NCBI RefSeq assembly: GCF_003857055.1
Contig: NZ_QGSZ01000217.1
Coordinates: forward strand, 62,001 to 126,000
Length of the DNA: 64,000 nt
Reading direction: 5' to 3'
DNA from: Micromonospora inaquosa
GTDB lineage: Bacteria; Actinomycetota; Actinomycetes; Mycobacteriales; Micromonosporaceae
The position numbers and the translations under genes were made by a program. Position 1 is the first letter of the stretch; every line of letters starts with the position of its first letter. Positions 23,940 to 49,466 of this stretch are shown one piece after another. The notes beneath the pieces were generated by a model. It made no database searches, had not been told where the DNA came from, and saw nothing but the letters and a program-made list of their open reading frames with translations.

Positions 23940-23946
23940 ATACCGA

Positions 23947-25329: not shown

Positions 25330-26324
25330 CATCCGCCAACCAGATCCGTATGCCCGCCGGCGGCGCTTCCGCGTCGCCGGCGGGCCCCCACAAGGCTGGG
25401 CGCGCGTCCGCCCGTCGAGCCGACAACCGCCGCAAGTGGTACGAGATCATCGGGCTCACCACGCCGGCCGTCCTCATCTACGTGATGTTCGTGCTGGTGC
25501 CGATGGGCTTCGCGGTCTACTACAGCCTGTTCCGGTGGCGCGGTGTCGGGCCCCCCACCGAGTTCGTCGGCCTGAGGAACTACACCCTCGCCTTCCAGGA
25601 CCCGATCTTCCTCGACGCGTTGCGCAACAACGCCATCATCGTGTTTGGGTCGCTGCTGATCCAGGGCCCGATCGCCCTGGGCGTCGCCCTGCTGCTCAAC
25701 CGTCGCTTCCGTGGGCGCGCCGTGTTCCGCCTGCTGGTGTTCGTGCCGTACGTGCTCGCCGAGGTCACCGTCGGCATCATGTGGAAGCTGCTTCTGACCG
25801 GCGGCGGCACGGTCGACGCGTTGCTGCGGTCACTGGGACTGGGCAGTCTGGTGCAGGCCTGGCTCGCGGACCTGGACCTGGTCATCTGGACCCTGCTGGC
25901 CGTCCTCACCTGGAAGTACGTCGGCTTCGCCATCATCCTTCTCCTCGCCGGGCTGTCCAACGTGCCCGACGAGCTGACCGAGGCGGCGGCCATCGACGGC
26001 GCGAGCTGGTGGCAGATCCAACGACACGTCACGATCCCGCTGCTCGGCCCGACGATCCGGATCTGGATGTTCCTGTCCATGATCGGCTCACTACAGATCT
26101 TCGACATGATCTGGGTGACCTCGGTGCCCGCGGTGCGGTCCCTCGGCGCGTCGGCCACCATGGCGACCTACATGGTGGACAACGGGTTCTTCGCCCGGCT
26201 CTGGGGCTACGGCAACGCCGTGGCGGTAATCCTGTTCGTCATCTCCTTCGTGGCGGCGCTGCTGTTCCAGCGGTTCCTGCTTCGTCGTGACATCGATGGC
26301 GCCATCACCGGAAGGGCGAAGTGA
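25326..26324 (+). CDS. bxlF: Sugar ABC transporter permease (BxlF-like)
   Basis: 332 residues starting at a GTG whose last bases overlap the stop of the binding-protein gene (GTGA). Six transmembrane segments of the MalF type, with the EAA cytoplasmic loop ELTEAAAIDGASWWQIQRHVTIPLLGP, which contacts the ATPase. It ends directly before the second permease, again with an overlapping GTGA, so the three genes are translationally coupled. The N-terminal ~35 residues are basic and cytoplasmic. Confidence 0.87.
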   Translation: MTSANQIRMPAGGASASPAGPHKAGRASARRADNRRKWYEIIGLTTPAVLIYVMFVLVPMGFAVYYSLFRWRGVGPPTEFVGLRNYTLAFQDPIFLDALRNNAIIVFGSLLIQGPIALGVALLLNRRFRGRAVFRLLVFVPYVLAEVTVGIMWKLLLTGGGTVDALLRSLGLGSLVQAWLADLDLVIWTLLAVLTWKYVGFAIILLLAGLSNVPDELTEAAAIDGASWWQIQRHVTIPLLGPTIRIWMFLSMIGSLQIFDMIWVTSVPAVRSLGASATMATYMVDNGFFARLWGYGNAVAVILFVISFVAALLFQRFLLRRDIDGAITGRAK

Positions 26325-27187
26325 CGATGGCCGTGAACACCGTTGTGCCCCCGTCCACCGGGCGCCGTCAGGTCTCCTGGGGGACGCCGCTCACCTACGC
26401 GATCGCGCTCGCGGTCGCGGCCGTGTCGATCGCCCCGGTCGTCTACGTGGTGATCGGCGGTTTCCGCACCACCCCGCAGATCGTCGCGGACCCGGCCGGC
26501 CTGCCCAACCCGCTCGTCTGGGACAACTACGCCAGGGTGCTGACCCAGAGCAACTTCTGGCAGCAAGCCTTCAACAGCGCGGTCATCGCCCTGGGCACCA
26601 CGCTCGCCGTCGTCGTGCTCGGGTTGGCCGCCGCGTTCGTGCTCGCCCGCTACAGCTTCCGCGGGCGGGAGGGGCTCTACACCTTCTTCACGCTCGGCCT
26701 GCTGTTCCCGGCCGGGGCGGCGATCCTGCCGCTCTACCTCATGCTGCGTGACCTGAATCTGATCAACTCCTACTACGCGGTGATCCTCCCGCAGGTCGCC
26801 TTCTCACTGCCGCTGACGATCGTGATTTTGCGGCCCTTCCTCTCGGCGATCCCGAGAGAGTTGGAGGACGCCGCCGCCATCGACGGCGCGAGTCGGCTCG
26901 GTTTCCTCTGGCGCGTCGCGATGCCGCTGTCGCGTCCCGCACTCGTCACCGTTGGCGTCCTGGCGTTCGTGGCCAGCTGGAACTCGTTCCTGCTGCCGCT
27001 GCTCGTCCTCAGCGACGTCAGCCTGCACACCCTGCCGCTGGGCGTGCAGAACTTCTCCAGCCAATACACCACCGACACGGCGGGCGTACTCGCCTTCACG
27101 TCGCTGGCGATGCTGCCGGCACTGCTCTTCTTCACGCTCGCGGAGAAGCAGATCGTCGGGGGCCTGCAAGGTGCGGTCAAGGGCTGA
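26321..27187 (+). CDS. bxlG: Sugar ABC transporter permease (BxlG-like)
   Basis: 288 residues. GTG 26321 overlaps the preceding stop; an ATG at 26327 is an alternative. MalG-type permease with about six transmembrane segments and the EAA loop ELEDAAAIDGASRLGFLWRVAMPLSRP. Together with the preceding permease it forms the membrane pore of the bxl-like importer. Confidence 0.87.
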   Translation: MTMAVNTVVPPSTGRRQVSWGTPLTYAIALAVAAVSIAPVVYVVIGGFRTTPQIVADPAGLPNPLVWDNYARVLTQSNFWQQAFNSAVIALGTTLAVVVLGLAAAFVLARYSFRGREGLYTFFTLGLLFPAGAAILPLYLMLRDLNLINSYYAVILPQVAFSLPLTIVILRPFLSAIPRELEDAAAIDGASRLGFLWRVAMPLSRPALVTVGVLAFVASWNSFLLPLLVLSDVSLHTLPLGVQNFSSQYTTDTAGVLAFTSLAMLPALLFFTLAEKQIVGGLQGAVKG

Positions 27188-27225
27188 GCGGCAGCGGCAC
27201 GAGCACAACCACGGAAAGGCACAGC

Positions 27226-29550
27226 ATGACTGAGGTCCACGAGGTGGTGGACGGACCGGTGCCGACTCAGGCCGGTCCGAACCACAGCCGACAGGCCGGG
27301 CACGACGCCGGGGAACGCCTACGCGATCTCCTCGGCCGGATGACGATCGAGGAAAAGATCGCCCAGCTCGTCGGCTTCTGGCAGAAGGAGGACGGCGAGG
27401 CGGTCGCACCGTTGCAGGGGGAGTTCGGCGACGTCTTCAAGCTCGAGGACTTTTCCCGGCACGGGCTCGGTCACCTCACCCGCGCCTACGGCACCCGCCC
27501 AGTGGACCCGGCGGATCGCGCGTCCTGGCTGTGGAAGTTCCAGCGGGACCTGGTCAACGGGACCCGGCTCGGCATCCCGGCGATCGTCCACGAGGAATGC
27601 CTCACCGGGCTGTCGGCGTGGAAGGCCGCCACCTTCCCCACCCCGCTGGCCTGGGGTGCCGCGTTCGACCCCGAACTGGTCACCGAGATGGCCGCGGCGA
27701 TCGGCGCCTCGATGCGGAGCCTCGGCATCCACCAGGGGCTGTCCCCGGTGCTCGACGTGATCCGTGACCCCCGCTGGGGTCGGGTGGACGAGTGCATCGC
27801 CGAAGACCCGTACCTGGTCGGCACCATCGGCACCTCGTACGTGCGGGGCCTGCAGTCGCAGGGGGTGCACGCCACCCTCAAGCACTTCGCCGGCTACTCC
27901 GCCTCGCGCGCCGGGCGCAACTTCGGCCCGGTGCACGCCGGCCGCCGGGAACTGGCCGACGTGCTGCTCCTCCCGTTCGAGATGGCGATCATCGACGGCG
28001 ACGCCCGCAGCGTCATGCACTCGTACACCGAGATCGATGGAGTGCCCGTCGCCGCCGACCCGACGATGCTGACCGGCATCCTGCGGGACCAGTGGGGCTT
28101 CGACGGCACGGTGGTGGCTGACTACTACGGGGTCGCTTTCCTCAACCTGCTGCACCACGTGGCGAGCGATCACGCGGAGGCGGCCAGGCAGGCGTTGACG
28201 GCCGGTCTCGACGTCGAGCTACCGACCGGCGACGCCTATCTGACCCTGCCGGAGTCGGTACGGGCGGGCAAGCTCGACGAGGCGCTCATCGACCGCGCGG
28301 TACTGCGGGTGCTGCGCCAGAAGCAGGAGCTGGGCCTGCTCGACGCGACCTTCAGCGACGAGCCGCCCCAGACGATCGACCTCGACTCGCCGGAGCACCG
28401 GTCGATCGCCCGCCGGCTCGCCGAGGAATCGATCGTGCTGGTCGCCAACCAGGGCGCGCTGCCGCTGCCAGCGGGTCGGCGGGTGGCCCTCATCGGCCCG
28501 AACGCCGACCGGCAGGGCGCGCTCTTCGGGTGCTACTCATTCCTCAACCACGTCCTCGTCCAGTATTCCGGTGTGGAGACCGGCATCGAGGTGCCGACCG
28601 TGCTCGACGCCGTGCGGGTCGAGTTCGGCGACGACCTCGTCACCTGGGCACACGGCTGTGACGTGGACACCGACGACCGATCCGGCTTCGACGAGGCTGT
28701 CGCCGCGGCGTCCGCCGCGGATGTCGCCGTCCTGGTCGTCGGCGACAACGCCGGCCTCTTCGGACGCGGCACGGTCGGCGAGGGTTGCGACCGGGACGAT
28801 CTGGAGCTGCCGGGCGTCCAACGCGAACTCGTCGAGGCGGTGCTCGCAACCGGCACGCCGGTCGTCCTCGTGCTGCTCACCGGACGGCCGTACACGGTCG
28901 GCTGGGCGCTTACGCGCTGCGCGGCGGTGGTGCAGACGTTCTTCCCGGGCGAGGAGGGCGCCGGGGCGATCGCGGGGGTGCTCTCCGGGCGGGTCAACCC
29001 GTCGGGCCGGCTGCCGGTCAGCCTGCCCGGGCCGGCCGGTGCGCAGCCCTACTCCTACCTGCACCCCACCCTCGGTACGGGCAGCGAGGTGACCAACCTG
29101 CCGGCGACGCCGGTGGCGCCGTTCGGTCACGGCCTGTCCTACACGACATTCGCGCACAGCGACCTCACCGTGTCCAGCACGGTGCCCACCGACGGGGCGA
29201 TCGAGGTGAGCGTGCGGGTGACGAACACCGGCGCGGTCGCCTGCGACGACGTGGTCCAACTCTACGGTCGCGACCCGGTCGCCTCGGTGACCCGGCCGTT
29301 GGCGCAACTGCTCGGCTACCAGCGGGTCCACCTGGAACCAGGTCAGTCCGTCACTGTCGAGCTGACCGTCCCCACCACCCGCCTGGCCTTCTCCGACCGC
29401 ACGTACACCCGCGTCGTGGAGCCCGGCGAGGTCGAACTCTGGGTCGGCACCAGCGCGCAGCGGGACACCCAGGCGGTGACCACGCTGGTCGGTGACACCG
29501 TCCCGGTCACCAACTCCTCCCCACGCTGGACCGTCACCAACGTCCGCTGA
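27226..29550 (+). CDS. bxlA: Glycoside hydrolase family 3 (beta-xylosidase/beta-glucosidase), BxlA-like
   Basis: 774 residues, GGAAAGG upstream of ATG 27226. GH3 N-terminal barrel: LSPVLDVIRDPRWGR, KHFAGY (Lys219-His220) and the nucleophile Asp299 in GFDGTVVADYYGV. The alpha/beta sandwich domain spans roughly 400-620, and a C-terminal fibronectin III-like domain starts near SVRVTNTGAVACDDVVQLYGRDP. No signal peptide, so it would hydrolyse imported disaccharide in the cytoplasm. Last gene of the bxl-like operon; GH3 enzymes in this position are beta-xylosidases in Streptomyces, but activity on glucosides cannot be excluded. Confidence 0.88.
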   Translation: MTEVHEVVDGPVPTQAGPNHSRQAGHDAGERLRDLLGRMTIEEKIAQLVGFWQKEDGEAVAPLQGEFGDVFKLEDFSRHGLGHLTRAYGTRPVDPADRASWLWKFQRDLVNGTRLGIPAIVHEECLTGLSAWKAATFPTPLAWGAAFDPELVTEMAAAIGASMRSLGIHQGLSPVLDVIRDPRWGRVDECIAEDPYLVGTIGTSYVRGLQSQGVHATLKHFAGYSASRAGRNFGPVHAGRRELADVLLLPFEMAIIDGDARSVMHSYTEIDGVPVAADPTMLTGILRDQWGFDGTVVADYYGVAFLNLLHHVASDHAEAARQALTAGLDVELPTGDAYLTLPESVRAGKLDEALIDRAVLRVLRQKQELGLLDATFSDEPPQTIDLDSPEHRSIARRLAEESIVLVANQGALPLPAGRRVALIGPNADRQGALFGCYSFLNHVLVQYSGVETGIEVPTVLDAVRVEFGDDLVTWAHGCDVDTDDRSGFDEAVAAASAADVAVLVVGDNAGLFGRGTVGEGCDRDDLELPGVQRELVEAVLATGTPVVLVLLTGRPYTVGWALTRCAAVVQTFFPGEEGAGAIAGVLSGRVNPSGRLPVSLPGPAGAQPYSYLHPTLGTGSEVTNLPATPVAPFGHGLSYTTFAHSDLTVSSTVPTDGAIEVSVRVTNTGAVACDDVVQLYGRDPVASVTRPLAQLLGYQRVHLEPGQSVTVELTVPTTRLAFSDRTYTRVVEPGEVELWVGTSAQRDTQAVTTLVGDTVPVTNSSPRWTVTNVR

Positions 29551-37315: not shown

Positions 37316-40315
37316 ATGTCAGACCTGACCCGACGGCAAGCCATCAAGATCGGCGCAGCCGGCGCGGGCGGCGCCCTTCTGCCGGTGCCCTGGACCGCCG
37401 TGGCACGAGCGGACTCGGTATCGCCGCCACAGGTGTTGGCCGCTGGGGACCTCGCACTCTGGTACGACGAGGGGGCCGGCAGCGACTGGCTGCGGGCGCT
37501 GCCGATCGGCAACGGCCGGCTCGGCGCCATGGTCTTCGGCAACGTCGACACCGAGCGACTTCAGCTCAATGAGGACACCGTCTGGGCCGGCGGCCCGCAC
37601 GATCCCAGCAACACCAGAGGCGCGGGGGCGCTCGCGGAGATCCGACGGCTGGTCAACGCGAACCAGTGGACCCAGGCCCAGGATCTGATCAACCAGACCA
37701 TGATGGGCAACCCGGGCGGCCAACTCGCGTACCAGACCGTCGGCAACCTCCGGCTCGCCTTCGGATCCGCCAGCGGCGCGTCACAGTACGACCGGACGCT
37801 CGACCTCACCACCGCCACCGTCACGACGACGTACGTGTTGAACGGCGTTCGTCACCAGCGGGAGGTGTTCGCCAGCGCACCGGATCAGGTGATCGCGATG
37901 CGACTGACCGCCGACCGCAGCGGCTCGATCAGCTTCACCGCCACCTTCGACAGCCCGCAGCGCACCACGGTGTCCAGCCCGGACGGGACCACGATCGGCC
38001 TCGACGGCGTCTCCGGGAACATGGAGGGCGTCACCGGCGCGGTCCGCTTCCTCGCCCTGGCCAACGCCACGGTCAGCGGCGGCAGTGTGTCCAGCTCCGG
38101 CGGCACCCTGCGGGTGACCAACGCCAACAGCGTGACACTGCTGATCTCCATCGGCTCCAGCTACGTCAACTACCGCAACGTCGGTGGCGACTACCAGGGC
38201 ATCGCCCGGCAGCGCCTCACCGCGGCGCGGGCCAGCAGCTACGACCAGCTGCGCAGCCGACACGTGGCCGACTACCAGGCGCTGTTCGGCAGGGTCACTC
38301 TGGATCTGGGCCGTACGTCCGCGGCCGACCAGACGACCGATGTCCGGATCGCCCAGCACAACAACGTCAACGACCCGCAGTTCTCCACGCTGCTGTTCCA
38401 GTACGGCCGGTATCTGCTGATCTCGTCGTCGCGGCCCGGCACCCAGCCGGCGAACCTCCAGGGCATCTGGAACGACTCGCTGGCTCCGGCGTGGGACTCG
38501 AAGTACACGATCAACGCCAACCTGCCGATGAACTACTGGCCGGCGAACACCACCAACCTGGCCGAATGCCACGGCCCGGTCTTCGACATGGTCCGGGAGC
38601 TCGCGGTCACCGGCACCCGCACCGCGCAGGTGCAGTACGGCGCGGCGAGCGGGTGGGTCACCCACCACAACACCGACGCGTGGCGGGCCACCGCGGTGGT
38701 GGACGGCGCGTTCTGGGGCATGTGGCAGACCGGCGGCGCCTGGCTCTCGACGTTGATCTGGGACCACTACCTGTTCAACGGCGACATCGAGTTCCTGCGG
38801 ACGAACTATCCGGCGATGAAGGGCGCGGCGCAGTTCTTCCTCAACACCCTTGTCACCGAGCCGACCCTCGGATACCTGGTGACCAACCCGTCGAACTCGC
38901 CGGAGCTCAGCCACCACTCGAACGCGAGCGTGTGCGCCGGCCCCACCATGGACAACCAGATCCTGCGGGACCTGTTCGACGCGTGCGCCCGGGCGAGCGA
39001 GATCCTCGACGTGGACAGCACCTTCCGGGCGCAGGTGCGTGCCACCCGGGACCGGCTCCCACCCATGAAGATCGGCTCTCGCGGCAACATCATGGAGTGG
39101 CTCTACGACTGGGTGGAGACCGAGCCCAACCACCGGCACATCTCGCACCTGTACGGTCTGGCGCCCAGCAACCAGATCACCAGGCGCGGCACCCCGCAGT
39201 TGTTCGAAGCGGCTCGCCGGACCCTGGCGTTGCGCGGCGACGACGGCACGGGCTGGTCACTGGCCTGGAAAATCAACTTCTGGGCTCGGATGGAGGAGGG
39301 CAAGCGAGCCCACGACCTGATCCGCTACCTCGCCACCACCGCGCGACTCGCGCCCAACATGTTCGACCTGCACCCGCCGTTCCAGATCGACGGCAACTTC
39401 GGCGCCACCGCCGGCATCGCCGAGATGCTGTTGCAGAGCCACGCGGGTGAGCTGCACGTCCTGCCCGCGCTGCCGCCGGCCTGGCCGAGCGGGCGGGTGA
39501 CCGGCCTACGCGGTCGGGGCGGGCACACGGTCGGCATCACGTGGGCGAGCGGCCAGGCCACCGAGATCCTCGTCCGACCGGATCGGGCCGGCACCGTCCG
39601 CCTCCGCTCCCGGATCCTGACCGGCACCGTCACTGTGGTGGACACCAGCGACGGTACGGCGGCCCGGACCACCCGGATCGACTCCGACCTCATCGACGTC
39701 ACGGTGCAGGCCGGACGCACCTACCGGGTCACCAGCTCCGGCGTTGCCACCCCCACGCTGGAGCAGAGCTTCAGCAACGTCGGCATCACCAGCGACAGCA
39801 ACACCAACGTCGGAAACTTCGACGGCGGCGGGGCCTCGCTCTCCGCGCAGGCCCTGGCTCAGGCCGGCGCCAGCCCGGGAGGCACGGTGAGCCGCAACGG
39901 AGTCAACTTCCGCTGGCCCAATGTCAGCTCCGGGGCCGCCGACAACGCCATCGCGTCGGGCCAGACCATCAGCGTGACCGGCACCGGCCGAACGCTCGGC
40001 TTCCTGCTGACCGGCACCTACGGCGCGGTGTCCGGGACCGGCACTGTGGTCTACGCCGACGGCACCCGCCAGACGTTCACGCTGAGTTCGCCAGACTGGT
40101 ATGGCGGGCCGCACTCCGGGGGTACCGCGGCCATCGTGTCCGCGTACCAGAACCGGCCCAACAACGTCCGGCAGTCCACCGCCGGCTGCATCTACTACGT
40201 GGGCGTCGCGTTGCAGAGCAAGGCGGTGGCCTCGGTGGTGTTGCCCAACATCAGTGCCCGGCCGGCGACGAACGTGCCGACCATGCACGTCTTCGCCATC
40301 GCGATCGGCAGCTGA
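37316..40315 (+). CDS. Secreted glycoside hydrolase family 95 (alpha-L-fucosidase-type)
   Basis: 999 residues. Tat signal SDLTRRQAIKIGAAGAGG, so it is exported folded. N-terminal beta domain (about 40-300) with LPIGNGRLGAMVFG. (alpha/alpha)6 barrel: YTINANLPMNYWPANTTN supplies the paired catalytic Asn400/Asn402; NIMEWLYDWVETEPNHRHISHLYGL supplies Glu594 as likely acid; PFQIDGNFGATAG carries Asp692. These match the GH95 inverting mechanism with an Asn-activated water, known from Bifidobacterium AfcA. GH95 also includes L-galactosidases. Residues ~800-999 are an added carbohydrate-binding-like domain, beyond the usual ~780-residue core. Controlled by the ACATCnGATGT sites upstream. Confidence 0.9.
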   Translation: MSDLTRRQAIKIGAAGAGGALLPVPWTAVARADSVSPPQVLAAGDLALWYDEGAGSDWLRALPIGNGRLGAMVFGNVDTERLQLNEDTVWAGGPHDPSNTRGAGALAEIRRLVNANQWTQAQDLINQTMMGNPGGQLAYQTVGNLRLAFGSASGASQYDRTLDLTTATVTTTYVLNGVRHQREVFASAPDQVIAMRLTADRSGSISFTATFDSPQRTTVSSPDGTTIGLDGVSGNMEGVTGAVRFLALANATVSGGSVSSSGGTLRVTNANSVTLLISIGSSYVNYRNVGGDYQGIARQRLTAARASSYDQLRSRHVADYQALFGRVTLDLGRTSAADQTTDVRIAQHNNVNDPQFSTLLFQYGRYLLISSSRPGTQPANLQGIWNDSLAPAWDSKYTINANLPMNYWPANTTNLAECHGPVFDMVRELAVTGTRTAQVQYGAASGWVTHHNTDAWRATAVVDGAFWGMWQTGGAWLSTLIWDHYLFNGDIEFLRTNYPAMKGAAQFFLNTLVTEPTLGYLVTNPSNSPELSHHSNASVCAGPTMDNQILRDLFDACARASEILDVDSTFRAQVRATRDRLPPMKIGSRGNIMEWLYDWVETEPNHRHISHLYGLAPSNQITRRGTPQLFEAARRTLALRGDDGTGWSLAWKINFWARMEEGKRAHDLIRYLATTARLAPNMFDLHPPFQIDGNFGATAGIAEMLLQSHAGELHVLPALPPAWPSGRVTGLRGRGGHTVGITWASGQATEILVRPDRAGTVRLRSRILTGTVTVVDTSDGTAARTTRIDSDLIDVTVQAGRTYRVTSSGVATPTLEQSFSNVGITSDSNTNVGNFDGGGASLSAQALAQAGASPGGTVSRNGVNFRWPNVSSGAADNAIASGQTISVTGTGRTLGFLLTGTYGAVSGTGTVVYADGTRQTFTLSSPDWYGGPHSGGTAAIVSAYQNRPNNVRQSTAGCIYYVGVALQSKAVASVVLPNISARPATNVPTMHVFAIAIGS

Positions 40316-40471: not shown

Positions 40472-43400
40472 TCAGCGGATGCGCTCTCCGCGGCTCTCGA
40501 TCCGGAAGTAGTCGAAGGCGACGTCGAGGTCGGTGGAGGTGCCGGCCCGGTTGAAGGCCAGTAGCCCGGCCTTCGTCGGCTCGGCGTTCAGGGTCGTGGA
40601 GCCGATGTATCGGTAGACGTCCCCGTCGCTGGAGTAGTAGGCGCGGTAGCTGTTCCCGATCTTGGTCAGTCGGAGCCAGATGGCGCCGTCGGCCCCGACG
40701 ATGCGCTGGGCGTCGGCACCGGTGATCTCCAGGGTCGACGCCGTGCCGTTCTGTTCGCGTAGGAAGACGATCCGGGCCTTGTTGATGGCCGCGGTCGCGT
40801 TGCCCATCTCCCACGCGAGTTTCACGTAGTTGTTGTCGTCCGCGTACCCGAGAACACCGCCCTGCTCGTTGTTGGTGGCGAGTGGGCGGGAGAAGACCAC
40901 GGCGGACTCGGCCGTCCAGTCGCCGTCGACGTCCTGGAGGGCCAGGTTCCGCGCGGTGTTGACGTTGCCCTGGAGGTCGCCCTGCTGCGAGGTGATCACC
41001 AGAGACCCGTCGGCCAGTCGCCGCCTGCTCTCGTCCGGCCGGACCCACTGCCACTGCGCTCGGAGTTGTGTCGACTCGAACTCGTCGCTGCCGGTGATGG
41101 TGGTGTTCAACTCCACCGTGTAGACCGACGACGCTGCGCCGTTCGTGACGGTGACCCGAGCCTGCCCGGTGGGGTCGGTCGCCTGCTCGACCACGACCGA
41201 CGCGGCGGGGTCGGCGGCGGTGGCGGTGACCGTCGGCACGGTCGTGGTGCCGGCCGGCGTGAGGGCGTTGTAGCGCAGCACCGACGGTGCGAAGGCCGTC
41301 AGGCCCTTGCCGTCGACTCGCAGGGCCGTCAGCGTCGTGTCGGGCACCAGGTTGAAGACGTAGTTCTTCACGAGGGGGCCGAAGAAGCTCTCCGTGGTGA
41401 CCTTGACGACCGCCTGACCGGGTACGTCGGCCGCCTGGGAGATGATCTCGTAGCGGGCCTTCCGGTCAGCCGTCCGCACCTTGGTGATGGTCGGCGACGC
41501 CCCGGCCGGCACCGGGATGGTGTACGAGGTGTCCGACAGGTTGAAGCCGCCGAACGTCTTCCCGTTCACGGTGATCGTGGCCGACAGTGGCGCGTCGTTG
41601 ACCGGGATGTCCCGCCCGCTGAACTCCTTCCAGTAGTTCACCGAGGTGTCCCGCCAGTTGGCCGCGTCCGCCTCGTGGACCGCCAGCTTGGCGCGAACCT
41701 CGGTGAACCGGCGCGCGTCGATGTCGGGCTGGAGCGTTTCCCAGGTCTCCCGCATCCAGGTCACGTACTGCACACCCATCTGGTAGCGGTAGACCAACTC
41801 CGCCCAGAATGTCCGCCCGCTGTCCATCCGATGGCCCCACGGCACGTGGTGGAACCACATCAGCAGGTTCTCCGGGACCGAGTCGATGTCGCCGTAGCGC
41901 TGCTGGAGGCGGGGGAAGTACTGGGCGGCCAGGTTGCTGCCGGTGGGGGAGCGGTCGAAGCCCAGACCGACGCTGTCGGCCTTGTTGTAGTAGATCGGGC
42001 TCCAGTCGTCGCGGCCCGCCCAGTCGGCGGGGTCGGGGCGGTAGTGGGCGCCCTCGGCGAACTGGTGGCCGATGCCCAGCGGGGTCTGGTAGCTGACCAA
42101 CGACTCCCACGAGCCCATCATCATCCTGCGGATGGTGTCGACGACGCGCCGGTCGTTGCTCCAGGTCATCCGCGTCCAGTCGGTCGCGATGTCCGCCGAG
42201 TCGAGCGTCCAGTCCCACGCCTGACGGCCGAAGGCGAAGAGGTTCGCCTGGGCGAAGTGGTGCCCGGTCAGGTTGTCGGCGTTGCCGAGGTTGGCGACAC
42301 CCACGATGGCGGTGTCCGAGTGGTGTTGGGCGCTCCCGTCGACGATGTCGCCGACCAGCCGCTCCTTGAGCAGCTTCCCGTTCGCGTCGGTCGCGTACGT
42401 GTCGGTCTTGAGGATCTCCTCGTACATCGGGCCGAGGTAGGTCAGCATCCAGTTCTGACCCGTGTATTCCTGGGTGATCTGGAGTTCCAGGGCCTGGTTG
42501 GTGTTCTCCATCCGGCCGAACATCGGGTGGATGGGCTCCCGGGCCTGGAAGTCCAGTGGCCCGTTCTTGGTCTGCAGGAACACGTTGTCGGCGAAGCGTC
42601 CCCGGCTGCCGTCCGGCTGGGCCTCGTCGTCGATCGGCCCGAACTCCAGGTAGGCCCGCTTGAGCCGGTCGTTGTCGACCTCGGCGTTGTAGACGAACGT
42701 CCGCCAGTGCACGGTCATCCCGAGCGGCGCCACCGCGGCGGCGATGGCGTTGGCGCCGTCACCGTGGTCGTACCCGAAGTCCTGTGGCCCCGGCTGTCCC
42801 TCGGAGTTGGCCTTGACGGTGAGTCCCATGAAGTCCGGGATCGCGGCCTGGATCTGCTGGGCCCGGCGGTGCCACCAGCCCCGGAACTCCGCACCGTACG
42901 GGTCGAGTTGGCTGTTGGTCAGCGTGTCCGGCGCGAACCGGCTGTCGGTGGGCGCGGTGTAGCGGATCGACAGACCCAACCTGATGCCGTACGGACGCAG
43001 CGCGTCGGCGAGGGCCGCCTCCTGCGCGATGCGGGCGCTCGTCAGGTACGCGTTGTCGGCGTTGACGTTGTTGATGGTGATGCCGTTGATGCCCAGGGAC
43101 GCCAGCGCGCGGGCCATGACGAGGTAGCGGTCGAGGATGACGGGCAGGTTCCGGCCGGCGCTGGCACCGGTCGCGGCGAAGTTGAAGATCGCACCGCTCT
43201 CCCCGTTCAGCCCGCCCAGCCCGGAGGCGTTGTTGCCCGCGTAGAGACGCTCGGTCTCCCAGTTGTTCAGCAACCGATGCTTGATCTTCGGTGACTCCGC
43301 GACGCGGAGGTGGTCGATGGGTTTCTGGGTCTGCAGGAGCCGGAGGAAGGCGAAGGTGCCGTACAGCGCGCCGAGGTCGGTGTTGCCGGCGATGACGGTG

Positions 43401-43933
43401 AACCGTGCCCTGCCCTTCGACACCGAGCGGACGAGGTAGCCCTCGTCGCCCACCTTGGCCAGGTCGCGGGCCGCGATGCTGCGCCCCACCAGCGGCGAAC
43501 TCGCCGGTGTGCCCACCACTACCGCGCCGTCCGGGACCGTGCCGCCGTCGCCCGTCGTCACCGGTGTCGGCTGGCCGAGCAGCCCGCCCAGGCCGCGTAC
43601 CAGTTCGTCCCGGGCGGCGCCCAGCGTGGACTCGGCGAGTTTCTCGCTGGAACCGGGAGCCATCGCGAGGTCCGTGGTGTGCCGGTGGGCCCTGGTGGCG
43701 TCGGCGTTCTCGACCACGATCGCCGTGGCCGCCCGGCGGTAGTCGCGCAGCAGCTTCGCGTCGTCGACCGGCACGTACCGCAACCACAGGTCGGAGCCGC
43801 TGTAGTCGCCCGGCGACGCGGCCGCGGCGACCGGCGTGGTGGTGGCGACCGTGAGGGTGGCCGCGACGGTGGCGAACACCGTGCCCAGCACGATGAGGGT
43901 CCGCCGTAGCCGGGGCACCGAAGCTCGGTTCAT
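40472..43933 (-). CDS. Secreted multidomain GH67 alpha-glucuronidase
   Basis: 1153 residues; ATG 43933 is six bases after GAGGAG (an ATG at 43939 abuts it). Signal peptide ~1-38. The N-terminal GH67 accessory domain is followed by the barrel with LTVKANSEGQPGP (general acid Glu378), DNVFLQTKNGPLDFQAREP (Asp461) and QITQEYTG (Glu489). The helical C-terminal domain has YYNKADSVGLGFDRSPTGSNLAAQY and LLMWFHHVPWGH. These GH67 signatures indicate removal of (4-O-methyl)glucuronic acid from xylo-oligosaccharides. Residues ~780-1153 add an Ig/cadherin-like domain and a concanavalin-like domain. Most GH67 enzymes are intracellular and ~680-700 residues, so export and the extra domains are unusual. Confidence 0.9.
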   Translation of the reverse strand: MNRASVPRLRRTLIVLGTVFATVAATLTVATTTPVAAAASPGDYSGSDLWLRYVPVDDAKLLRDYRRAATAIVVENADATRAHRHTTDLAMAPGSSEKLAESTLGAARDELVRGLGGLLGQPTPVTTGDGGTVPDGAVVVGTPASSPLVGRSIAARDLAKVGDEGYLVRSVSKGRARFTVIAGNTDLGALYGTFAFLRLLQTQKPIDHLRVAESPKIKHRLLNNWETERLYAGNNASGLGGLNGESGAIFNFAATGASAGRNLPVILDRYLVMARALASLGINGITINNVNADNAYLTSARIAQEAALADALRPYGIRLGLSIRYTAPTDSRFAPDTLTNSQLDPYGAEFRGWWHRRAQQIQAAIPDFMGLTVKANSEGQPGPQDFGYDHGDGANAIAAAVAPLGMTVHWRTFVYNAEVDNDRLKRAYLEFGPIDDEAQPDGSRGRFADNVFLQTKNGPLDFQAREPIHPMFGRMENTNQALELQITQEYTGQNWMLTYLGPMYEEILKTDTYATDANGKLLKERLVGDIVDGSAQHHSDTAIVGVANLGNADNLTGHHFAQANLFAFGRQAWDWTLDSADIATDWTRMTWSNDRRVVDTIRRMMMGSWESLVSYQTPLGIGHQFAEGAHYRPDPADWAGRDDWSPIYYNKADSVGLGFDRSPTGSNLAAQYFPRLQQRYGDIDSVPENLLMWFHHVPWGHRMDSGRTFWAELVYRYQMGVQYVTWMRETWETLQPDIDARRFTEVRAKLAVHEADAANWRDTSVNYWKEFSGRDIPVNDAPLSATITVNGKTFGGFNLSDTSYTIPVPAGASPTITKVRTADRKARYEIISQAADVPGQAVVKVTTESFFGPLVKNYVFNLVPDTTLTALRVDGKGLTAFAPSVLRYNALTPAGTTTVPTVTATAADPAASVVVEQATDPTGQARVTVTNGAASSVYTVELNTTITGSDEFESTQLRAQWQWVRPDESRRRLADGSLVITSQQGDLQGNVNTARNLALQDVDGDWTAESAVVFSRPLATNNEQGGVLGYADDNNYVKLAWEMGNATAAINKARIVFLREQNGTASTLEITGADAQRIVGADGAIWLRLTKIGNSYRAYYSSDGDVYRYIGSTTLNAEPTKAGLLAFNRAGTSTDLDVAFDYFRIESRGERIR

Positions 43934-44080: not shown

Positions 44081-45163
44081 TCACGGCAGGTGGGCCGCCG
44101 GGCCCGGCCCGGACCGCTGCCGAGCCCACGAGGGTCGGGCGCGACCGGGGCTCGGGTTGCGCGCGGCCGTCGAGTCGCGGACCACGAGGCGAACCGGCAG
44201 GACCATCGGTCGGCCGGTGTGCCCCGGCGCCCCCTCGATCATCGTGAGCAGGTGCCGGGTCGCGGCTGAGCCCTCCGCGTAGAGCGGCGCCGCGACAGTG
44301 GTGAGGCCGGGCGTGACGATGTCGGCGGCGAGGATGTTGTCGAAACCCACGACGCTGACGTCGCCCGGAACGTTGACGCCCATCCGGCTGAGGCCGCGGA
44401 TGATCCCGATGGCCATCTGGTCGTTGAAGGCGAGGACCGCCGTCGCGGGACGCGCGTACAACTCCTGTGCGGCCCGCTCACCGCCGGCCATGGTGGGGCT
44501 GAACGGCCCGATCTGACGAACCTTGATCTCCAACTCCATGCCCGCTTCGAGCAGCGACCGCCAGCGGATGCCGTTCGGCCAGGACGCCTGCGGCCCCGCG
44601 ACGTAGGTGATGTGGTCGTGCCCCAGCTCGCCGAGGTGCTCGGCGGCCCGCCGCACCCCACGTGGGTCGTCCGTGACGACGCACGGCACGTCGGCGAGAG
44701 CGCGGTTGAGGACCACCACCGGTCGCTGTTTGGCGACCATCCGGATGGCTGAGTCGGACATCCGGCTGCTGGCCAGCACGATGCCGTCGACCGTCGACAT
44801 GGCGCGTTCCACAGCCGCCCGTTCCAACCGGTCGGACTCCTGGGCGTCGATCAGCACTGTGGTGTATTCGCCGTCGGTCGCCGCCTCCTGCGCGCCGCGC
44901 ACGATCTCCGCGTACACCGGGTTGGTGATGTCGGCGATGACCAGCGCGATCATCTGCGTGCGGGACGTGGTGAGGGCGCGGGCGAGGGGGTTGGTCCGGT
45001 AGCCCAACCGCTCGGCGACCCGCCGGATCCGTTCGGCGGTCTCGGAGTTGACGCGACTCGGCCGGGAGAAGGCGCGGGACACCGTGGACGGTGACACGTC
45101 GGCCTCGACAGCGACGTCGTAGATCGTGACTCTCTTTCCCGGCGGCCTGGTGTGGTCGGGCAT
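44081..45163 (-). CDS. LacI-family transcriptional repressor
   Basis: 360 residues; ATG 45163 is seven bases after GGAGGAG (an ATG at 45169 is too close). HTH VTIYDVAVEADVSPSTVSRAFSRPSRVNSETAERI, then hinge RTNPLARALTTSR and the sugar-binding core through GFDNILAADIVTPGLTTVAAPLY. The C-terminal ~25 residues are a disordered Arg/Pro-rich tail. It sits between the GH67 gene (same strand, downstream) and the divergent ABC operon; palindromes on both sides suggest it represses both. Ligand probably a uronic-acid sugar, by context. Confidence 0.88.
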   Translation of the reverse strand: MPDHTRPPGKRVTIYDVAVEADVSPSTVSRAFSRPSRVNSETAERIRRVAERLGYRTNPLARALTTSRTQMIALVIADITNPVYAEIVRGAQEAATDGEYTTVLIDAQESDRLERAAVERAMSTVDGIVLASSRMSDSAIRMVAKQRPVVVLNRALADVPCVVTDDPRGVRRAAEHLGELGHDHITYVAGPQASWPNGIRWRSLLEAGMELEIKVRQIGPFSPTMAGGERAAQELYARPATAVLAFNDQMAIGIIRGLSRMGVNVPGDVSVVGFDNILAADIVTPGLTTVAAPLYAEGSAATRHLLTMIEGAPGHTGRPMVLPVRLVVRDSTAARNPSPGRARPSWARQRSGPGPAAHLP

Positions 45164-45276
45164 CTGCATGCTCCTCCCGGCTACGCGGCGTGATCATGGT
45201 ATGGCGGCCGTGAATACTCGGCAATGCCCCGGCAACAATCCGGGGCCGCCGGATCGCATTCGCGCGAGGCAATACA

Positions 45277-45350: not shown

Positions 45351-46571
45351 ATGGGTATGACGCGGCGCGGAGCTCTCCTGGTCACGGCATCGTCGCTCCT
45401 GGTGGGCGCGGTCGGGTGCGGGGCACCCGAAGCTCCCGGTGGCACCGAGGGCGACACCACGGGCGAGGTGCCACAGCGGCCCGGTAAGGCCGTCACGCTC
45501 AACGTCCTCGACGTGGCGGGCAACCTCCAGTTGACCCAGGGGATGATCGACGAGTTCGTCTCGAAGAACCCCGAGGTGATCTCCCGGGTGACCTATTCGA
45601 AGGCGCCGGCGCCCGAGCTGGCCGGGAAGATCAAGGCCCAGCAGGGGGCGGACCGGGTGGACATCGGTCTCGTGCTGACCGGCGTCGACGGCCTGGCCGC
45701 CGGGATCGAGCAAGGGCTCTGGATCGACGTGCTGCCGACCTTCCAGGACCGCCTCGGCGGCATGCGCGACTACCTGACGCCGGCCGCCGCGATGCAGCAG
45801 CTCGCCGGCAACGCGGGCGTCACCGTCACCTACTACCCGTCCGGCCCGCTGCTCGAATACCTGCCGTCCCGCCTCGCCTCGCCTCCCACCAGCGCGGACG
45901 CGTTGCTCGCCTGGGCCAAGGCCAACCCCAAGAAGTTCCAGTACGCCCGCCCGGCCAACTCCGGCCCGGGCCGGACCTTCCTGATGGGTCTGCCCTACAT
46001 CCTCGGCGACTCGAACCCCAAGGACCCCACCGCGGGGTGGGACAAGACGTGGGCCTTCCTCAAGGAGTTGGGCCAGTACGTCGACTACTACCCGTCCGGC
46101 ACCACCGAGACGATGAAGAACCTCGCCAACGGCACCGCGCACCTGATCGTCAGCACGACCGGTTGGGACATCAACCCGCGGGTGCTCGGCACGGTGCCCA
46201 AGGAGGCCAGGATCACCCCGATCGACGGCTTCCACTGGGTCACCGACGCGCACTACGCGGTCATGCCCAAGGGCGTGTCGACCGACACCCAGGCCGCGGT
46301 GCTGGCCCTGTTGGCGTTCATGCTCACCCCCGAACAGCAGGCGAAGGCGTACGACGAGGGCTACTTCTACCCGGGCCCGGCGATCAAGGAGGTCCAGCTC
46401 TCGTCGGCGCCGCAGAAGAGTCAGGACGCGATCCGGGAGTTCGGTCGCCCGGAGTACGACGCGCTGATCGCCGGGAACCCGACCGAGGTCCCGCTCGACG
46501 CGAAGAGCCTGGTGGCGGCGTTCAGCCGCTGGGACCGCGAGATCGGTGGCGGGAAGGTCAAGCAGGGATGA
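45351..46571 (+). CDS. ABC transporter substrate-binding lipoprotein
   Basis: 406 residues; GGAGGGAA lies six bases before ATG 45351. Twin arginines (TRRGALL) plus lipobox VGAVGC (Cys23) suggest a Tat- or Sec-exported lipoprotein. The mature part is a family 1 solute-binding protein (LNVLDVAGNLQLTQGMIDEFVSKNPEVISRVTY, DNLANGTAH-like LANGTAHLIVSTTGWD), closer in length and pattern to the PotD/iron/2-aminoethylphosphonate type than to MalE. First gene of a four-gene importer operon, its stop overlapping the ATPase ATG. Ligand unknown; LacI and GH67 context point to a sugar acid. Confidence 0.82.
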   Translation: MGMTRRGALLVTASSLLVGAVGCGAPEAPGGTEGDTTGEVPQRPGKAVTLNVLDVAGNLQLTQGMIDEFVSKNPEVISRVTYSKAPAPELAGKIKAQQGADRVDIGLVLTGVDGLAAGIEQGLWIDVLPTFQDRLGGMRDYLTPAAAMQQLAGNAGVTVTYYPSGPLLEYLPSRLASPPTSADALLAWAKANPKKFQYARPANSGPGRTFLMGLPYILGDSNPKDPTAGWDKTWAFLKELGQYVDYYPSGTTETMKNLANGTAHLIVSTTGWDINPRVLGTVPKEARITPIDGFHWVTDAHYAVMPKGVSTDTQAAVLALLAFMLTPEQQAKAYDEGYFYPGPAIKEVQLSSAPQKSQDAIREFGRPEYDALIAGNPTEVPLDAKSLVAAFSRWDREIGGGKVKQG

Positions 46572-47680
46572 GCGGCTTCTCCCAGCTGCGGCTGGACGGG
46601 GTGTCCCGCCGGTTCGGTGGTCAGGCCGCGCTCACCGAGCTGGACTTGACGATCGAGGCGGGGGAGTTCATCGCCCTGCTCGGCCCGTCCGGCTGCGGCA
46701 AGTCGACGGCGTTGAACTGTCTGGCCGGGCTCCTGCCGTTGACGGCGGGGAGCATCTGGCAGGACGAGCGCCGCATCGACACGCTGCCACCGGAGCGGCG
46801 CGGCTTCGGCATGGTGTTCCAGAGCTACGCCCTCTTCCCGCACCTGACGGTCCGGGCGAACATCGCCTTCGGACTGCGGATGCGGCGGCTGCCCAAGGAG
46901 GAGACCCGCCGGCGTACGGAGGAGGCGGTACGGCTGGTGCGACTGGAGGACCACGTCGACAAGCTCCCCGGTCAGCTCTCGGGTGGGCAGCAGCAGCGCG
47001 TCGCGATCGCCCGCGCCGTCGTGTTCGAGCCGTCCCTGGTGTTGATGGACGAGCCGTTGAGCAACCTCGACGCCAAGCTGCGCCTGGAGATGCGGACCGA
47101 GATCCGCCGGCTGCACCAGTCGCTGGGGCTCACCACCGTCTACGTGACCCACGACCAGGAGGAGGCGCTCTCCCTGGCCGACCGGCTGGTGGTGCTGCGG
47201 GAGGGGCGGGTGCAGCAGATCGGCTCGCCGCGCGAGCTGCACACCCGGCCGGCGAACTGGCACGTCGCCGACTTCATGGGCTACCGCAACCTGTGGCGGG
47301 GGCGGGTGGAGCAGCTCGACGGTGCCCAGGCCACCGTCGAGTCGTCCGGCCATCGCCTGCTCGGCGAGGCGGTCGGTGGCCTCCAGAGCCGGGCGGAGGC
47401 CGTCGTCGCGGTACGCCCCGAGGACATCCGCGTCGACGGGCCCGGCGAAACGCGCAACACCATGTCGGCGACCGTCGAGGTGGTGGAGTATCAGGGTCGC
47501 GAGTTGGCGGCCGAGGCCCGCACCGACACCGGGCTGCTGCTGCACCTGCGGACCGAGCAGCGCATCGCCCCGGGCGACCAGGTCAAGCTCGCCGTCGACC
47601 CGCAGCGGCTGCTCGTCTACCCCGCCGACGTGTCGGCGCGGGCCGACCGCCTCGCGGACGCCTCGGGGGCGACGCGGTGA
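46568..47680 (+). CDS. ABC transporter ATPase (PotA/MalK type)
   Basis: 370 residues. Walker A GPSGCGKST (39-47), Q-loop FQSYALFPHLTV, signature LSGGQQQR, Walker B LVLMDEP, switch VYVTHDQEEA. The C-terminal ~110 residues form a TOBE/OB domain (VVAVRPEDIRVDG, VVEYQGRELAAEARTDTG), as in PotA and MalK. Encoded within the operon, so this importer has its own ATPase, unlike the bxl-like system. ATG overlaps the binding-protein stop. Confidence 0.9.
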   Translation: MSGFSQLRLDGVSRRFGGQAALTELDLTIEAGEFIALLGPSGCGKSTALNCLAGLLPLTAGSIWQDERRIDTLPPERRGFGMVFQSYALFPHLTVRANIAFGLRMRRLPKEETRRRTEEAVRLVRLEDHVDKLPGQLSGGQQQRVAIARAVVFEPSLVLMDEPLSNLDAKLRLEMRTEIRRLHQSLGLTTVYVTHDQEEALSLADRLVVLREGRVQQIGSPRELHTRPANWHVADFMGYRNLWRGRVEQLDGAQATVESSGHRLLGEAVGGLQSRAEAVVAVRPEDIRVDGPGETRNTMSATVEVVEYQGRELAAEARTDTGLLLHLRTEQRIAPGDQVKLAVDPQRLLVYPADVSARADRLADASGATR

Positions 47681-48576
47681 GCGGCGCCGGGCCCGGGAGG
47701 CCGCTGACGCACTGGCAGCACCGTCTCGCCGAGCGGGGCGTCGACCGTCAGCTCTGGTTGCTGGTCCCGGCGCTGGTCTTCGTCGTCGCCCTGTTCCTCT
47801 ACCCGTTCTTCTACGGGTTGACGCTCTCGTTCCAGCCGACCAGGGGCGGACCGTTCAGCGACTACGCCCGGTTCTTCTCCGACTCGTACGAGCGGGGCAC
47901 GATCTGGATCACGCTGCGGATCGCGTTGCCCGCCGCGTTGCTGAACGTCCTCGCCGCGGTGCCGATCGCCTACCGGATGCGCGGCCGGTTCCGGGGCAAG
48001 CGCTTGGTCACCACGCTGCTGGTCGTGCCGATCACGCTCGGCACGGTCCTCACCGCGCAGGGGTTGTTGAACTTCCTCGGCCCGACCGGCTGGTTCAACC
48101 GGATCCTGCTGGCCACCAACCTCGTCGAGGAGCCGGTGCGGCTGACCCACAACTACTGGGGCGTGTTCTTCTCGCTGGTGATCACCGGCTTTCCGTTCGC
48201 GTTCCTGCTGGTGCTCTCGTACCTGTCCGGCATCGACCCGACCCTGGAACGGGCCGCGGCGACGTTGGGCGCGGACTGGCGTCGCCGGTTCACCCGGATC
48301 ACCCTGCCGCTGCTGATGCCCGGCCTCGCCACCACCTTCTGCCTGACCTTCGTGCTGGCGTTCAGCGTGTTCCCGTCGGCGGTCCTGGTCGGCAACCCGG
48401 CCGGTGAGACCCGGGTCATCTCCCTCGCCGCCTACCAGGCCGCGTATGAGCGGTACGACTACCCGTACGCGTCCGCGATCGCCATGATCATGGGCTTCGT
48501 CGAGCTGGTCATCATCGCGGTGGTGCTGGCCGCTCGCAGCCGCTTCTACACCGGTTCCACCGGAGGCAAGGGCTGA
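47677..48576 (+). CDS. ABC transporter permease (PotB-like)
   Basis: 299 residues from a GTG overlapping the ATPase stop. Six transmembrane segments, with the EAA-type loop ERAAATLGADWRRRFTRITLPLLMPGL. The short periplasmic loops and PotB-like order (LTLSFQPTRGGPFSDYARFF) fit polyamine/sugar-acid/phosphonate permeases rather than MalF. Last base overlaps the next ATG. Confidence 0.86.
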   Translation: MSGAGPGRPLTHWQHRLAERGVDRQLWLLVPALVFVVALFLYPFFYGLTLSFQPTRGGPFSDYARFFSDSYERGTIWITLRIALPAALLNVLAAVPIAYRMRGRFRGKRLVTTLLVVPITLGTVLTAQGLLNFLGPTGWFNRILLATNLVEEPVRLTHNYWGVFFSLVITGFPFAFLLVLSYLSGIDPTLERAAATLGADWRRRFTRITLPLLMPGLATTFCLTFVLAFSVFPSAVLVGNPAGETRVISLAAYQAAYERYDYPYASAIAMIMGFVELVIIAVVLAARSRFYTGSTGGKG

Positions 48577-49466
48577 TGGCAACGACCACCCGGGCGCGGC
48601 CGGCGCGACCCCCCGCCACCAGCACCGACCGGCGGCGGCGCATCGCCGCGAGGCCGGCCGCCTGGCTCGTGTGGGGCGTCGTCATCTTCTTCTTCCTCAA
48701 CCTGCTGGGCGTGGTGGCGTCCGTGCTGGTCAGCTCGTTCGGCCAGCGATGGTTCGACACCTGGCTCCCGGACGGCTACACCACCAGTTGGTACGCCCGA
48801 GCCTGGGACGAGTTCGCGCTCCTGCAGGTCATCGTCGTGACGCTGGAGGTCTCCGTACTCGTTGTGGGTCTGTCGCTGCTGATCGGCGTGCCGGCCGCCT
48901 ACGCCCTCGCGCGACGCTCGTTCCCGGGCAAGCGGCTGATCTTCCTGGTGTTCCTGCTGCCCATCCTCATGCCCCCGATCACGTACGGCATCCCGCTGGC
49001 GACCGTCCTGTACAAGTTCGGCCTGGCCGGGCACATGTCCGGGGTGGTGCTCGCGAACCTCGTACCGTCGGTGCCGTTCGTCATCCTGACCATGACCCCG
49101 TTCATCGAGCAGATCGACCCGCGGATCGAGAGTGCCGCGCGGATGTGCGGCGCGGGCCTGCGCACCGTGTTCCTGCGGGTCCTCACGCCGCTGCTGGTGC
49201 CGGGCATCCTCGCCTCCGCGATCCTCGTGCTGGTCCGGACCGTGGGCATGTTCGAGCTGACCTTCCTGACCGCGGGGCCCGACTCGCAGACCCTGGTGGT
49301 GGCGCTCTACTACTCGATGTCCGCGTCCGGGATCAGGGCCCAGCAGTCGGTCGACGCCATGGCCGTCATCTACACCTCGATGATGCTGGTCCTGCTCGTC
49401 GTCGCACTGCGCTACGTCAACCCGACCCAGCTGGTGGCGCAGGTCAAGGACGAGCCGGAGCACTGA
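48576..49466 (+). CDS. ABC transporter permease (PotC-like)
   Basis: 296 residues; the ATG shares one base with the previous stop (TGATG). Six transmembrane segments and EAA loop ESAARMCGAGLRTVFLRVLTPLLVPGI. Completes the importer. Its 3' end overlaps the 3' end of the convergent kinase gene by 23 bp. Confidence 0.86.
   Translation: MATTTRARPARPPATSTDRRRRIAARPAAWLVWGVVIFFFLNLLGVVASVLVSSFGQRWFDTWLPDGYTTSWYARAWDEFALLQVIVVTLEVSVLVVGLSLLIGVPAAYALARRSFPGKRLIFLVFLLPILMPPITYGIPLATVLYKFGLAGHMSGVVLANLVPSVPFVILTMTPFIEQIDPRIESAARMCGAGLRTVFLRVLTPLLVPGILASAILVLVRTVGMFELTFLTAGPDSQTLVVALYYSMSASGIRAQQSVDAMAVIYTSMMLVLLVVALRYVNPTQLVAQVKDEPEH

What the first reader, a model, noticed from the sequence alone, without database searches (positions are those of the whole stretch)
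40472..43933. Exported 1153-residue GH67 with two added C-terminal domains
All GH67 catalytic signatures are present, but the enzyme has a signal peptide and ~370 extra residues (Ig/cadherin-like and concanavalin-like). GH67 normally acts inside the cell on imported aldouronates, so extracellular action, perhaps attached to polymer, would be a different strategy.
Basis: partly seen in the sequence, partly recalled or inferred. Interest (0 to 1): 0.55.

Follow-up and report, generated by a model that had tools for sequence, protein, structure and literature searches.

The report
Secreted xylan glucuronidase with accessory domains
A soil Micromonospora carries a gene for a probably secreted enzyme of a separate branch of the GH67 family, which clips glucuronic acid off wood xylan; it has a rebuilt loop near the active site and an added sugar-binding-type domain, and it is probably an extracellular debranching enzyme rather than a wholly new kind of system.

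Summary
Confirmed, on the minus strand: window 43933-40472 encodes an intact 1153-aa GH67 protein with a signal-peptide-like N-terminus, two Ig/cadherin-like segments and a C-terminal ConA-like domain of the GH43 beta-xylosidase type (PF17851; fold match Z 20.2). It is not an isolated oddity. It belongs to one clade, almost all actinobacterial: 42 of 43 dereplicated members carry an export-signal-like N-terminus, against 1 of 59 canonical actinobacterial GH67s. The genome also has a second, cytoplasmic-looking GH67. Catalytic and glucuronate-binding positions are unchanged in 43 of 43 members, but 29 columns that are at least 90% conserved in 107 other GH67s differ, and the loop after the Trp160 strand has 35-39 residues in all 43, against 13-16 in the 108 others. 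Neighbours of relatives (GH10, GH43, GH62, GH54, GH115, glucuronate isomerase) and a beta-xylosidase/ABC operon in the same window point to xylan. Best reading: an extracellular alpha-1,2-(4-O-methyl)glucuronosidase held near xylan by its ConA-like domain. Whether it keeps GH67's exo rule is open. New variant of a known kind.

The parts
40472..43933 (-). exported GH67 protein, 1153 aa, intact
43820..43933 (-). signal-peptide-like N-terminus, about residues 1-38 (cleavage site not computed)
   Evidence: (own hydrophobicity scan), sequence
41597..43804 (-). GH67 catalytic core, residues 44-779 (N, M and C Pfam domains)
   Evidence: fold match to 1l8n Z 36.6, rmsd 2.7, 614 aligned
43130..43234 (-). 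clade-specific long glycine-rich loop after the Trp160 strand, residues 234-268
   Evidence: residues 226-264 have pLDDT under 50 in the model
41336..41596 (-). Ig-like segment 1, residues 780-866
   Evidence: strand pattern of model; dN/dS 0.10-0.22; no Pfam hit of its own
41090..41335 (-). Ig/cadherin-like segment 2, residues 867-948, relaxed (dN/dS 0.37-0.71)
   Evidence: profile match to a stretch of beta-galactosidase 8q2h, E 6e-7
40484..41089 (-). ConA-like domain of the GH43 beta-xylosidase C-terminal type, residues 949-1150
   Evidence: Z 20.2 to 6ms3_B, rmsd 2.6, 182 aligned
44081..45169 (-). LacI-family regulator upstream of the gene
   Evidence: homologues in 19 of 46 loci compared
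37316..40315 (+). GH95 with a Tat-type signal by eye (Pfam TAT_signal below its cut-off), convergent neighbour
   Evidence: homologues in 13 of 46 loci compared
45351..49466 (+). ABC transporter: lipoprotein-like SBP (from about 45351), ATPase 46568-47680, permeases to 48576 and 49466; substrate unknown
22876..29550 (.). LacI (-), sugar SBP, two permeases and GH3 beta-xylosidase/alpha-L-arabinosidase without signal-like start (+): probable xylo-oligosaccharide uptake operon
   Evidence: (NF052329, 1309.6 bits against cut-off 1050)

Best explanation
The protein is an exported alpha-1,2-(4-O-methyl)glucuronosidase of a distinct, chiefly actinobacterial GH67 clade, working in extracellular breakdown of glucuronoxylan. 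It leaves the cell by its N-terminal signal (Sec or Tat; predicted). The GH67 core removes (Me)GlcA by the usual inverting mechanism, with Glu acid and Asp/Glu base (residues present; mechanism by family knowledge). The substrates are most likely MeGlcA-bearing xylo-oligosaccharides made outside by GH10-type xylanases (inferred). The Ig-like segments act as spacers (inferred from relaxed selection on the second), and the ConA-like domain holds the enzyme near xylan or long oligosaccharides (inferred from fold and conservation). The debranched xylo-oligosaccharides are then taken up by an ABC system and cut by a cytoplasmic GH3 such as the one encoded at 22876-29550 (inferred). The enzyme is therefore complementary to the second, cytoplasmic-looking GH67 of the same genome, which would treat imported aldouronates.
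For: Core. Cj positions W160, V210, K288, E292, R325, K360, D365 and E393 are identical in 43 of 43 clade rows (what those residues do is recalled, but a constant offset fits four recalled numbers). Export: 42 of 43 against 1 of 59. One clade: SH-aLRT 100, branch length 1.05, separate from the actinobacterial clade that holds the genome's second copy. Second copy: L002, 37-41% identical, no SP-like N-terminus. Neighbours of relatives: GH10 about 25 bases downstream (L017), GH43 plus GH43_C2 and GH27-type upstream (L040), GH62 (L038), GH54-CBM2 (L043), GH127 and GH43 (L009), GH115 (L016), glucuronate isomerase (L108, with its homologue in L109). Same window: GH3 beta-xylosidase with ABC and LacI. 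ConA-like domain: dN/dS 0.16-0.33 in seven comparisons, 15 of 15 match PF17851. No GH115 found in this genome.
Against: No activity, secretion or binding data. Several neighbours of relatives are unrelated to glycans (helicase, proteases, acyl-CoA dehydrogenase, TPR proteins). The ConA-like domain is absent from relatives that end near residue 780 or 865 (several Streptomyces; Amycolatopsis, Nonomuraea, Nocardioides), so it is not needed for the core role. In GH43 enzymes a domain of this kind is reported to shape the active pocket (title in a reference list), so it need not be a free binding module. 13 of 21 exported-clade genomes tested lack a UxaC match, so the released uronate may not be used by that route. 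Changes around the fingerprint could mean another substrate.
Confidence: 0.58

Rival explanations
1. Endo-acting variant: the long loop and the changed columns reopen the blind canyon, so that the enzyme removes MeGlcA from internal xylose units of polymeric xylan, with the ConA-like domain as anchor.
For: The loop after the strand that carries Trp160 has 35 residues (41 rows) or 39 (2 rows) in the clade against 13-16 in 108 others, with no intermediate, and is well conserved in the clade; 29 fingerprint columns change while the glucuronate pocket does not; export and a ConA-like domain; no GH115, the family known for this job, was found in this genome.
Against: 12 of 21 exported-clade genomes do have GH115, so it is no general replacement; passages describe GH67 as cutting only at the non-reducing end (one search says so too, beside a sentence that GH67 also acts on polymeric xylans); the loop is not modelled (pLDDT under 50), so opening of the canyon is not shown.
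Confidence: 0.18
2. Different glycan: the clade removes alpha-linked (4-O-methyl)glucuronate from another plant or microbial polymer (arabinogalactan or gum type), or from xylan whose uronate carries a further sugar; the GH95 neighbour would act on the same side chain.
For: GH95 is beside GH67 in 13 of 46 loci compared, and a partial GH95 match (39.5 bits, cut-off 27) lies beside it in a Streptomyces (L043); GH127 and GH27-type neighbours; GH115 includes one arabinogalactan enzyme (passage).
Against: GH10, GH43, GH62, GH54, GH115 and beta-xylosidase contexts favour xylan; the GH95 has Thr where the corn-xylan alpha-L-galactosidase has it, but 7kmq, its closest solved relative, aligns with Thr as well, so this does not settle its sugar.
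Confidence: 0.14
3. Not exported, or inactive: the hydrophobic N-terminus is a membrane anchor, or the enzyme is a degenerate copy.
For: No signal-peptide program was available; three Micromonospora orthologues (L015, L020, L041) are broken into frames.
Against: Catalytic residues unchanged in 43 of 43 rows, dN/dS of the core 0.15-0.23, signal-like N-termini of several different sequence types across the clade, including clear twin-arginine ones.
Confidence: 0.1

Closest known systems
GlcA67A of Cellvibrio japonicus (1gqi, GH67)
   Same: Three-domain GH67 core, all catalytic and glucuronate-binding positions checked; exported lineage (membrane-bound by recall)
   Different: About 40% identical over the structurally aligned core; 15-residue loop, no added C-terminal domains in the chain, exo-acting (passages)
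Fungal GH67 (ReGH67 of Rasamsonia; GH67 of Blastobotrys)
   Same: GH67 acting on MeGlcA-xylo-oligosaccharides; secretion read for Blastobotrys (passages)
   Different: Sequences not compared here; ReGH67 is strictly non-reducing-end acting
Cytoplasmic-looking actinobacterial and Bacillota GH67, including the second copy of this genome
   Same: Family and catalytic residues
   Different: SP-like start in only 1 of 59 and 0 of 12; second copy 37-41% identical and in a separate clade
GH43 beta-xylosidase C-terminal ConA-like domain (PF17851; probably CAZy CBM91)
   Same: Fold (Z 20.2, 182 aligned, rmsd 2.6, 25% identity) and Pfam family
   Different: Attached to a GH67 instead of a GH43; whether it binds xylan or reaches the active site is unknown
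GH115 alpha-glucuronidase
   Same: Same bond, debranching role, distantly similar fold (passages)
   Different: No GH115 Pfam match in this protein; different catalytic residues (passage)

Membership tests
GH67 alpha-glucuronidase | GH67N, GH67M and GH67C domains above Pfam cut-offs | tested here: met
   68.3, 358.1 and 276.9 bits against 24.3, 23.5 and 27
GH67 alpha-glucuronidase | catalytic acid Glu and base Asp/Glu plus the glucuronate-binding Lys, Arg, Lys | tested here: met
   43 of 43 clade rows identical at Cj 288, 292, 325, 360, 365 and 393; roles recalled
GH67 alpha-glucuronidase | GH67 fold | tested here: met
   1l8n Z 36.6, rmsd 2.7, 614 aligned; the nine GH67 entries have Z 27.9-36.6, the next rows about 20
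GH67 alpha-glucuronidase | release of (Me)GlcA from aldouronic acids | not testable with these tools
   no assay possible
canonical GH67 subgroup | HWDN...ERGYAGxS fingerprint and short following loop | tested here: not met
   H159, N162 and G170 replaced in 43 of 43, S175 in 39 of 43; loop 35-39 residues against 13-16
PF17851 / CBM91-type ConA-like domain | profile match and beta-sandwich fold | tested here: met
   15 of 15 at E<=0.05, 40.3 bits over cut-off 22.7 for the window protein; Z 20.2. Equation of PF17851 with CBM91 is recalled, supported by a passage on a GH43_11-CBM91 protein
PF17851 / CBM91-type ConA-like domain | binding of xylan | not testable with these tools
   no assay possible
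Cadherin-like PF12733 (second Ig-like segment) | match above the curated cut-off | tested here: not met
   16.0 and 17.6 bits against 24.2 in the window protein
GH115 | PF15979 match | tested here: not met
   absent from the ten families listed at E<=1
Exported protein | N-terminal signal peptide | tested here: inconclusive
   positive in my hydrophobicity scan only; no SignalP

The most novel reading that the evidence does not exclude
The clade is an unrecognised GH67 subfamily whose rebuilt loop after the Trp160 strand turns the exo-acting blind canyon into a cleft, so that it strips MeGlcA from internal positions of polymeric xylan outside the cell, a job so far assigned to GH115.
Probability: 0.17. 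Interest if true: 0.7.

Novelty: new variant of a known kind. Interest (0 to 1): 0.46.

Why it matters
GH67 is described in most of the passages read here as a family that cuts only at the non-reducing end, and Gram-positive examples there are treated as cytoplasmic. A tight, signal-bearing actinobacterial clade with an unchanged sugar pocket but a replaced neighbouring loop gives a natural test of what enforces the exo rule, and a possible source of secreted alpha-glucuronidases for xylan processing. It also shows one genome holding two GH67 lineages for what look like two compartments.

Tried and rejected
Rejected: GH115 membership (no Pfam match). Rejected: that the architecture is unique to this genome or an assembly artefact (full-length orthologues in other named species). 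Weighed and not used: the GH95 Thr marker as proof of alpha-L-galactosidase, because the closest solved relative 7kmq aligns with Thr too. NCBIfam gave no match for the GH67 protein. Plasmid records: 43 with a match, all under 60% identity, none covering 80% of the query. Upstream regions were aligned for regulator sites without a claim. Literature: searches for GH67 with extracellular; with signal peptide, Streptomyces and glucuronoxylan; CBM91 with xylan; GH67 with CBM91; with Micromonospora; GlcA67A; GH67 with secretome and Streptomyces; with Amycolatopsis listed no paper that I recognised from title and opening of the abstract as treating an exported actinobacterial GH67 clade; one search listed 25 of 102 and 15 of 22, I read passages of 14 papers only, and the library lacks most subscription journals. 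The two Ig-like segments were not folded alone.

Sampling limits: clade rows come mainly from a similarity search with the window protein and so are close by construction; the other GH67 rows are largely the best-scoring loci of Pfam searches (at most 30 per call), so weaker intermediates could be missing, although the full match list for Micromonospora is split (about 423-456 bits against 358-366 for unbroken matches). For the column counts 186 ORF matches were reduced: 5 short ones and 31 duplicates or contained copies were dropped, leaving 43 clade and 107 other rows plus Cellvibrio. The tree used 77 hand-picked rows: 25 clade rows, 51 others and Cellvibrio. The signal scan reads the open frame upstream of the core, not a proven start codon.
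Full report
WHAT IS THERE. The gene lies on the minus strand, 43933-40472, and encodes 1153 residues without interruption. Its core, residues about 46-779, is GH67 by Pfam, by sequence match to the Cellvibrio enzyme 1gqi (6e-170) and by the predicted fold (1l8n Z 36.6, rmsd 2.7, 614 aligned). Behind it come two short beta segments and a domain of the GH43 beta-xylosidase C-terminal type (Z 20.2 to 6ms3_B, 182 aligned, rmsd 2.6, 25% identity). The second beta segment matches cadherin-like PF12733 only below its cut-off in this protein, but 9 of 15 aligned homologues match it at E<=0.05, and a profile of the region matches a stretch of beta-galactosidase 8q2h (5.6e-07).

A CLADE, NOT A FREAK. 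One scan of a collection of 84,980 species genomes gave 44 distinct loci, of which 43 are of this clade and one (Dysgonomonas, 44% identical) is not. Relatives in Amycolatopsis, Nonomuraea and Nocardioides stop after the first Ig-like segment, and several Streptomyces ones stop after the core. In a sample of 151 Micromonospora genomes, 91 have GH67; 20 have an unbroken GH67M match of the exported type (about 360 bits over about 1065 bases) and 2 more (G418, G447) a broken one that looks like it. In a phylum-wide sample 5 of 396 genomes have any GH67, and in the order 41 of 298. In a 77-row tree the clade is one side of a branch with SH-aLRT 100 and length 1.05, next to the Bacteroidota/Cellvibrio rows under midpoint rooting; the cytoplasmic-looking actinobacterial GH67s form another clade with Bacillota as neighbours. 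The quick method, long end branches and uneven composition are flagged by the program.

EXPORT. My scan for a basic stretch followed by a hydrophobic 13-mer just before the core is positive in 42 of 43 clade rows, 26 of 30 Bacteroidota rows, 0 of 12 Bacillota rows, 1 of 59 canonical actinobacterial rows, and 2 of 6 rows of a second actinobacterial group; the other four of that group narrowly miss the threshold although all six carry SRR/TRR motifs. The signals of the clade are of different types: several Streptomyces ones read SRRxFMG, Amycolatopsis ones mostly RRRSFLIG, the window's RLRRTLIVLG. This is a home-made scan, not SignalP. The genome's second GH67 (C133, 37-41% identical) has no such N-terminus.

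CATALYTIC SITE. With Cellvibrio numbering, W160, V210, K288, E292, R325, K360, D365 and E393 are identical in 43 of 43 clade rows and in 107 of 107 others; W543 is identical in 43 of 43 and in 100 of 107. The roles of these residues are recalled; a constant offset of four fits four recalled numbers. By contrast, 29 columns with one residue in at least 90% of the others have a different commonest residue in the clade, among them H159 to N/Y, N162 mostly to T, G170 to L, V264 to F, R302 to Y/D/K/F, H400 to M, W453 to L/M/V and H549 to N. The loop between the conserved YAG and the next RY has 35 residues in 41 clade rows and 39 in 2, against 13-16 in the 108 others, Cellvibrio (15) included, with nothing between; it is well conserved within the clade, and two more insertions of 6 and 9 residues occur. 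Because it follows the strand that carries Trp160, I infer that the long loop is on the active-site face of the barrel. The model gives residues 226-264 pLDDT under 50, so its position is not shown.

CONTEXT. In the window: LacI, an ABC transporter (lipoprotein-like SBP, ATPase, two permeases) and an FGGY kinase on one side, a GH95 with a Tat-type start on the other; parts of this arrangement recur in 12-13 of 46 compared loci, LacI in 19. At 22876-29550 lies a LacI/sugar-ABC/GH3 set whose GH3 passes the NCBIfam cut-off for beta-xylosidase/alpha-L-arabinosidase (1309.6 against 1050) and has no signal-like start; it resembles the bxl operon of Streptomyces (recalled). Around relatives: GH10 about 25 bases downstream in L017; GH43 with GH43_C2, and GH27-type, in L040; GH62 in L038; GH54-CBM2 and a partial GH95 match with CBM2 in L043; GH127 and GH43 in L009; GH9-CBM2 in L011; a GDSL esterase in L013; GH115 in L016; glucuronate isomerase in L108. 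Other scanned neighbours are unrelated to glycans or had no Pfam match. The 30 neighbours scanned were chosen by hand, so these are examples, not rates.

GENOME TESTS. Of 21 genomes with an exported-clade GH67, 12 have GH115; of 5 Micromonospora without it, none; none was found in the window's genome. UxaC is found in 8 of the 21 and in 5 of the 5 controls; it follows genus (6 of 6 Micromonospora, 2 of 15 others), so it says little about the exported enzyme itself. So the clade is no general substitute for GH115, and in 13 of 21 cases there is no UxaC match for the freed uronate. This fits debranching for access to the xylose chain, but other uronate routes were not searched.

SELECTION. Against seven Micromonospora orthologues, dN/dS is 0.15-0.23 for the core, 0.10-0.22 for the first Ig-like segment, 0.37-0.71 for the second, and 0.16-0.33 for the ConA-like domain. 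The end domain is thus maintained, while the second segment behaves like a spacer.

READING. Papers (passages only): GH67 acts only at the non-reducing end, and GH115 also internally (PMC4870768, PMC3879575, PMC12037645); PMC13059095 says the same in one sentence and in another that GH67 also acts on polymeric xylans; PMC4153629 saw some activity of a GH67 on beechwood xylan and ascribes it to aldouronic acids in the mixture. In GH67 the pocket sits in a rigid blind canyon. Clostridial and Caldicellulosiruptor GH67s without signal peptide are taken as intracellular; yeasts secrete GH67 (PMC12316802); a cellulosome study lists an expressed GH67 among families it calls commonly cellulosomal (PMC6507058).

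Noticed in passing
L104:1728-9202 (+), L105:2033-9563 (minus strand, offsets on the reverse complement), L106:2112-5970, L107:2107-4906: A second actinobacterial GH67 group with twin-arginine starts, normal ERGYAG-type fingerprint and C-terminal tails of about 260-524 residues; two copies in tandem in two Micromonospora genomes. The four rows tested form one branch (SH-aLRT 99).
   Followed up: partly
window 45351-51030: ABC transporter with its own ATPase, nearest by score to phosphonate/polyamine types and below every NCBIfam cut-off shown, plus an FGGY kinase, kept beside this GH67 in 12-13 of 46 compared loci; substrate unknown.
   Followed up: partly
window 37316-40315: GH95 with a Tat-type start whose TxNxN motif carries Thr as in the corn-xylan alpha-L-galactosidase, but its closest solved relative 7kmq has Thr as well, so the sugar is open.
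   Followed up: partly
L016 (G792 contig C27): A MAG labelled Clostridiales Family XIII holds a full-length exported-clade GH67 with GH115 and UxaC within 16 kb on one contig; transfer from actinobacteria or mis-binning not examined.
   Followed up: no
L015, L020, L041 (also G418 and G447): Orthologues broken into two or more frames in three named Micromonospora; decay or sequencing error not told apart.
   Followed up: no
window 43934-44090: Intergenic stretch CGACAAGAAACGACAACTCxTTGCC nearly unchanged in 13 of the 14 Micromonospora loci aligned (not in L009), a candidate regulatory site.
   Followed up: no
G1028:C12:6649-7416: A remote second GH67M match (117 bits) in a Bacteroidota genome, in a 919-residue frame, far below the other matches of that search.
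   Followed up: no
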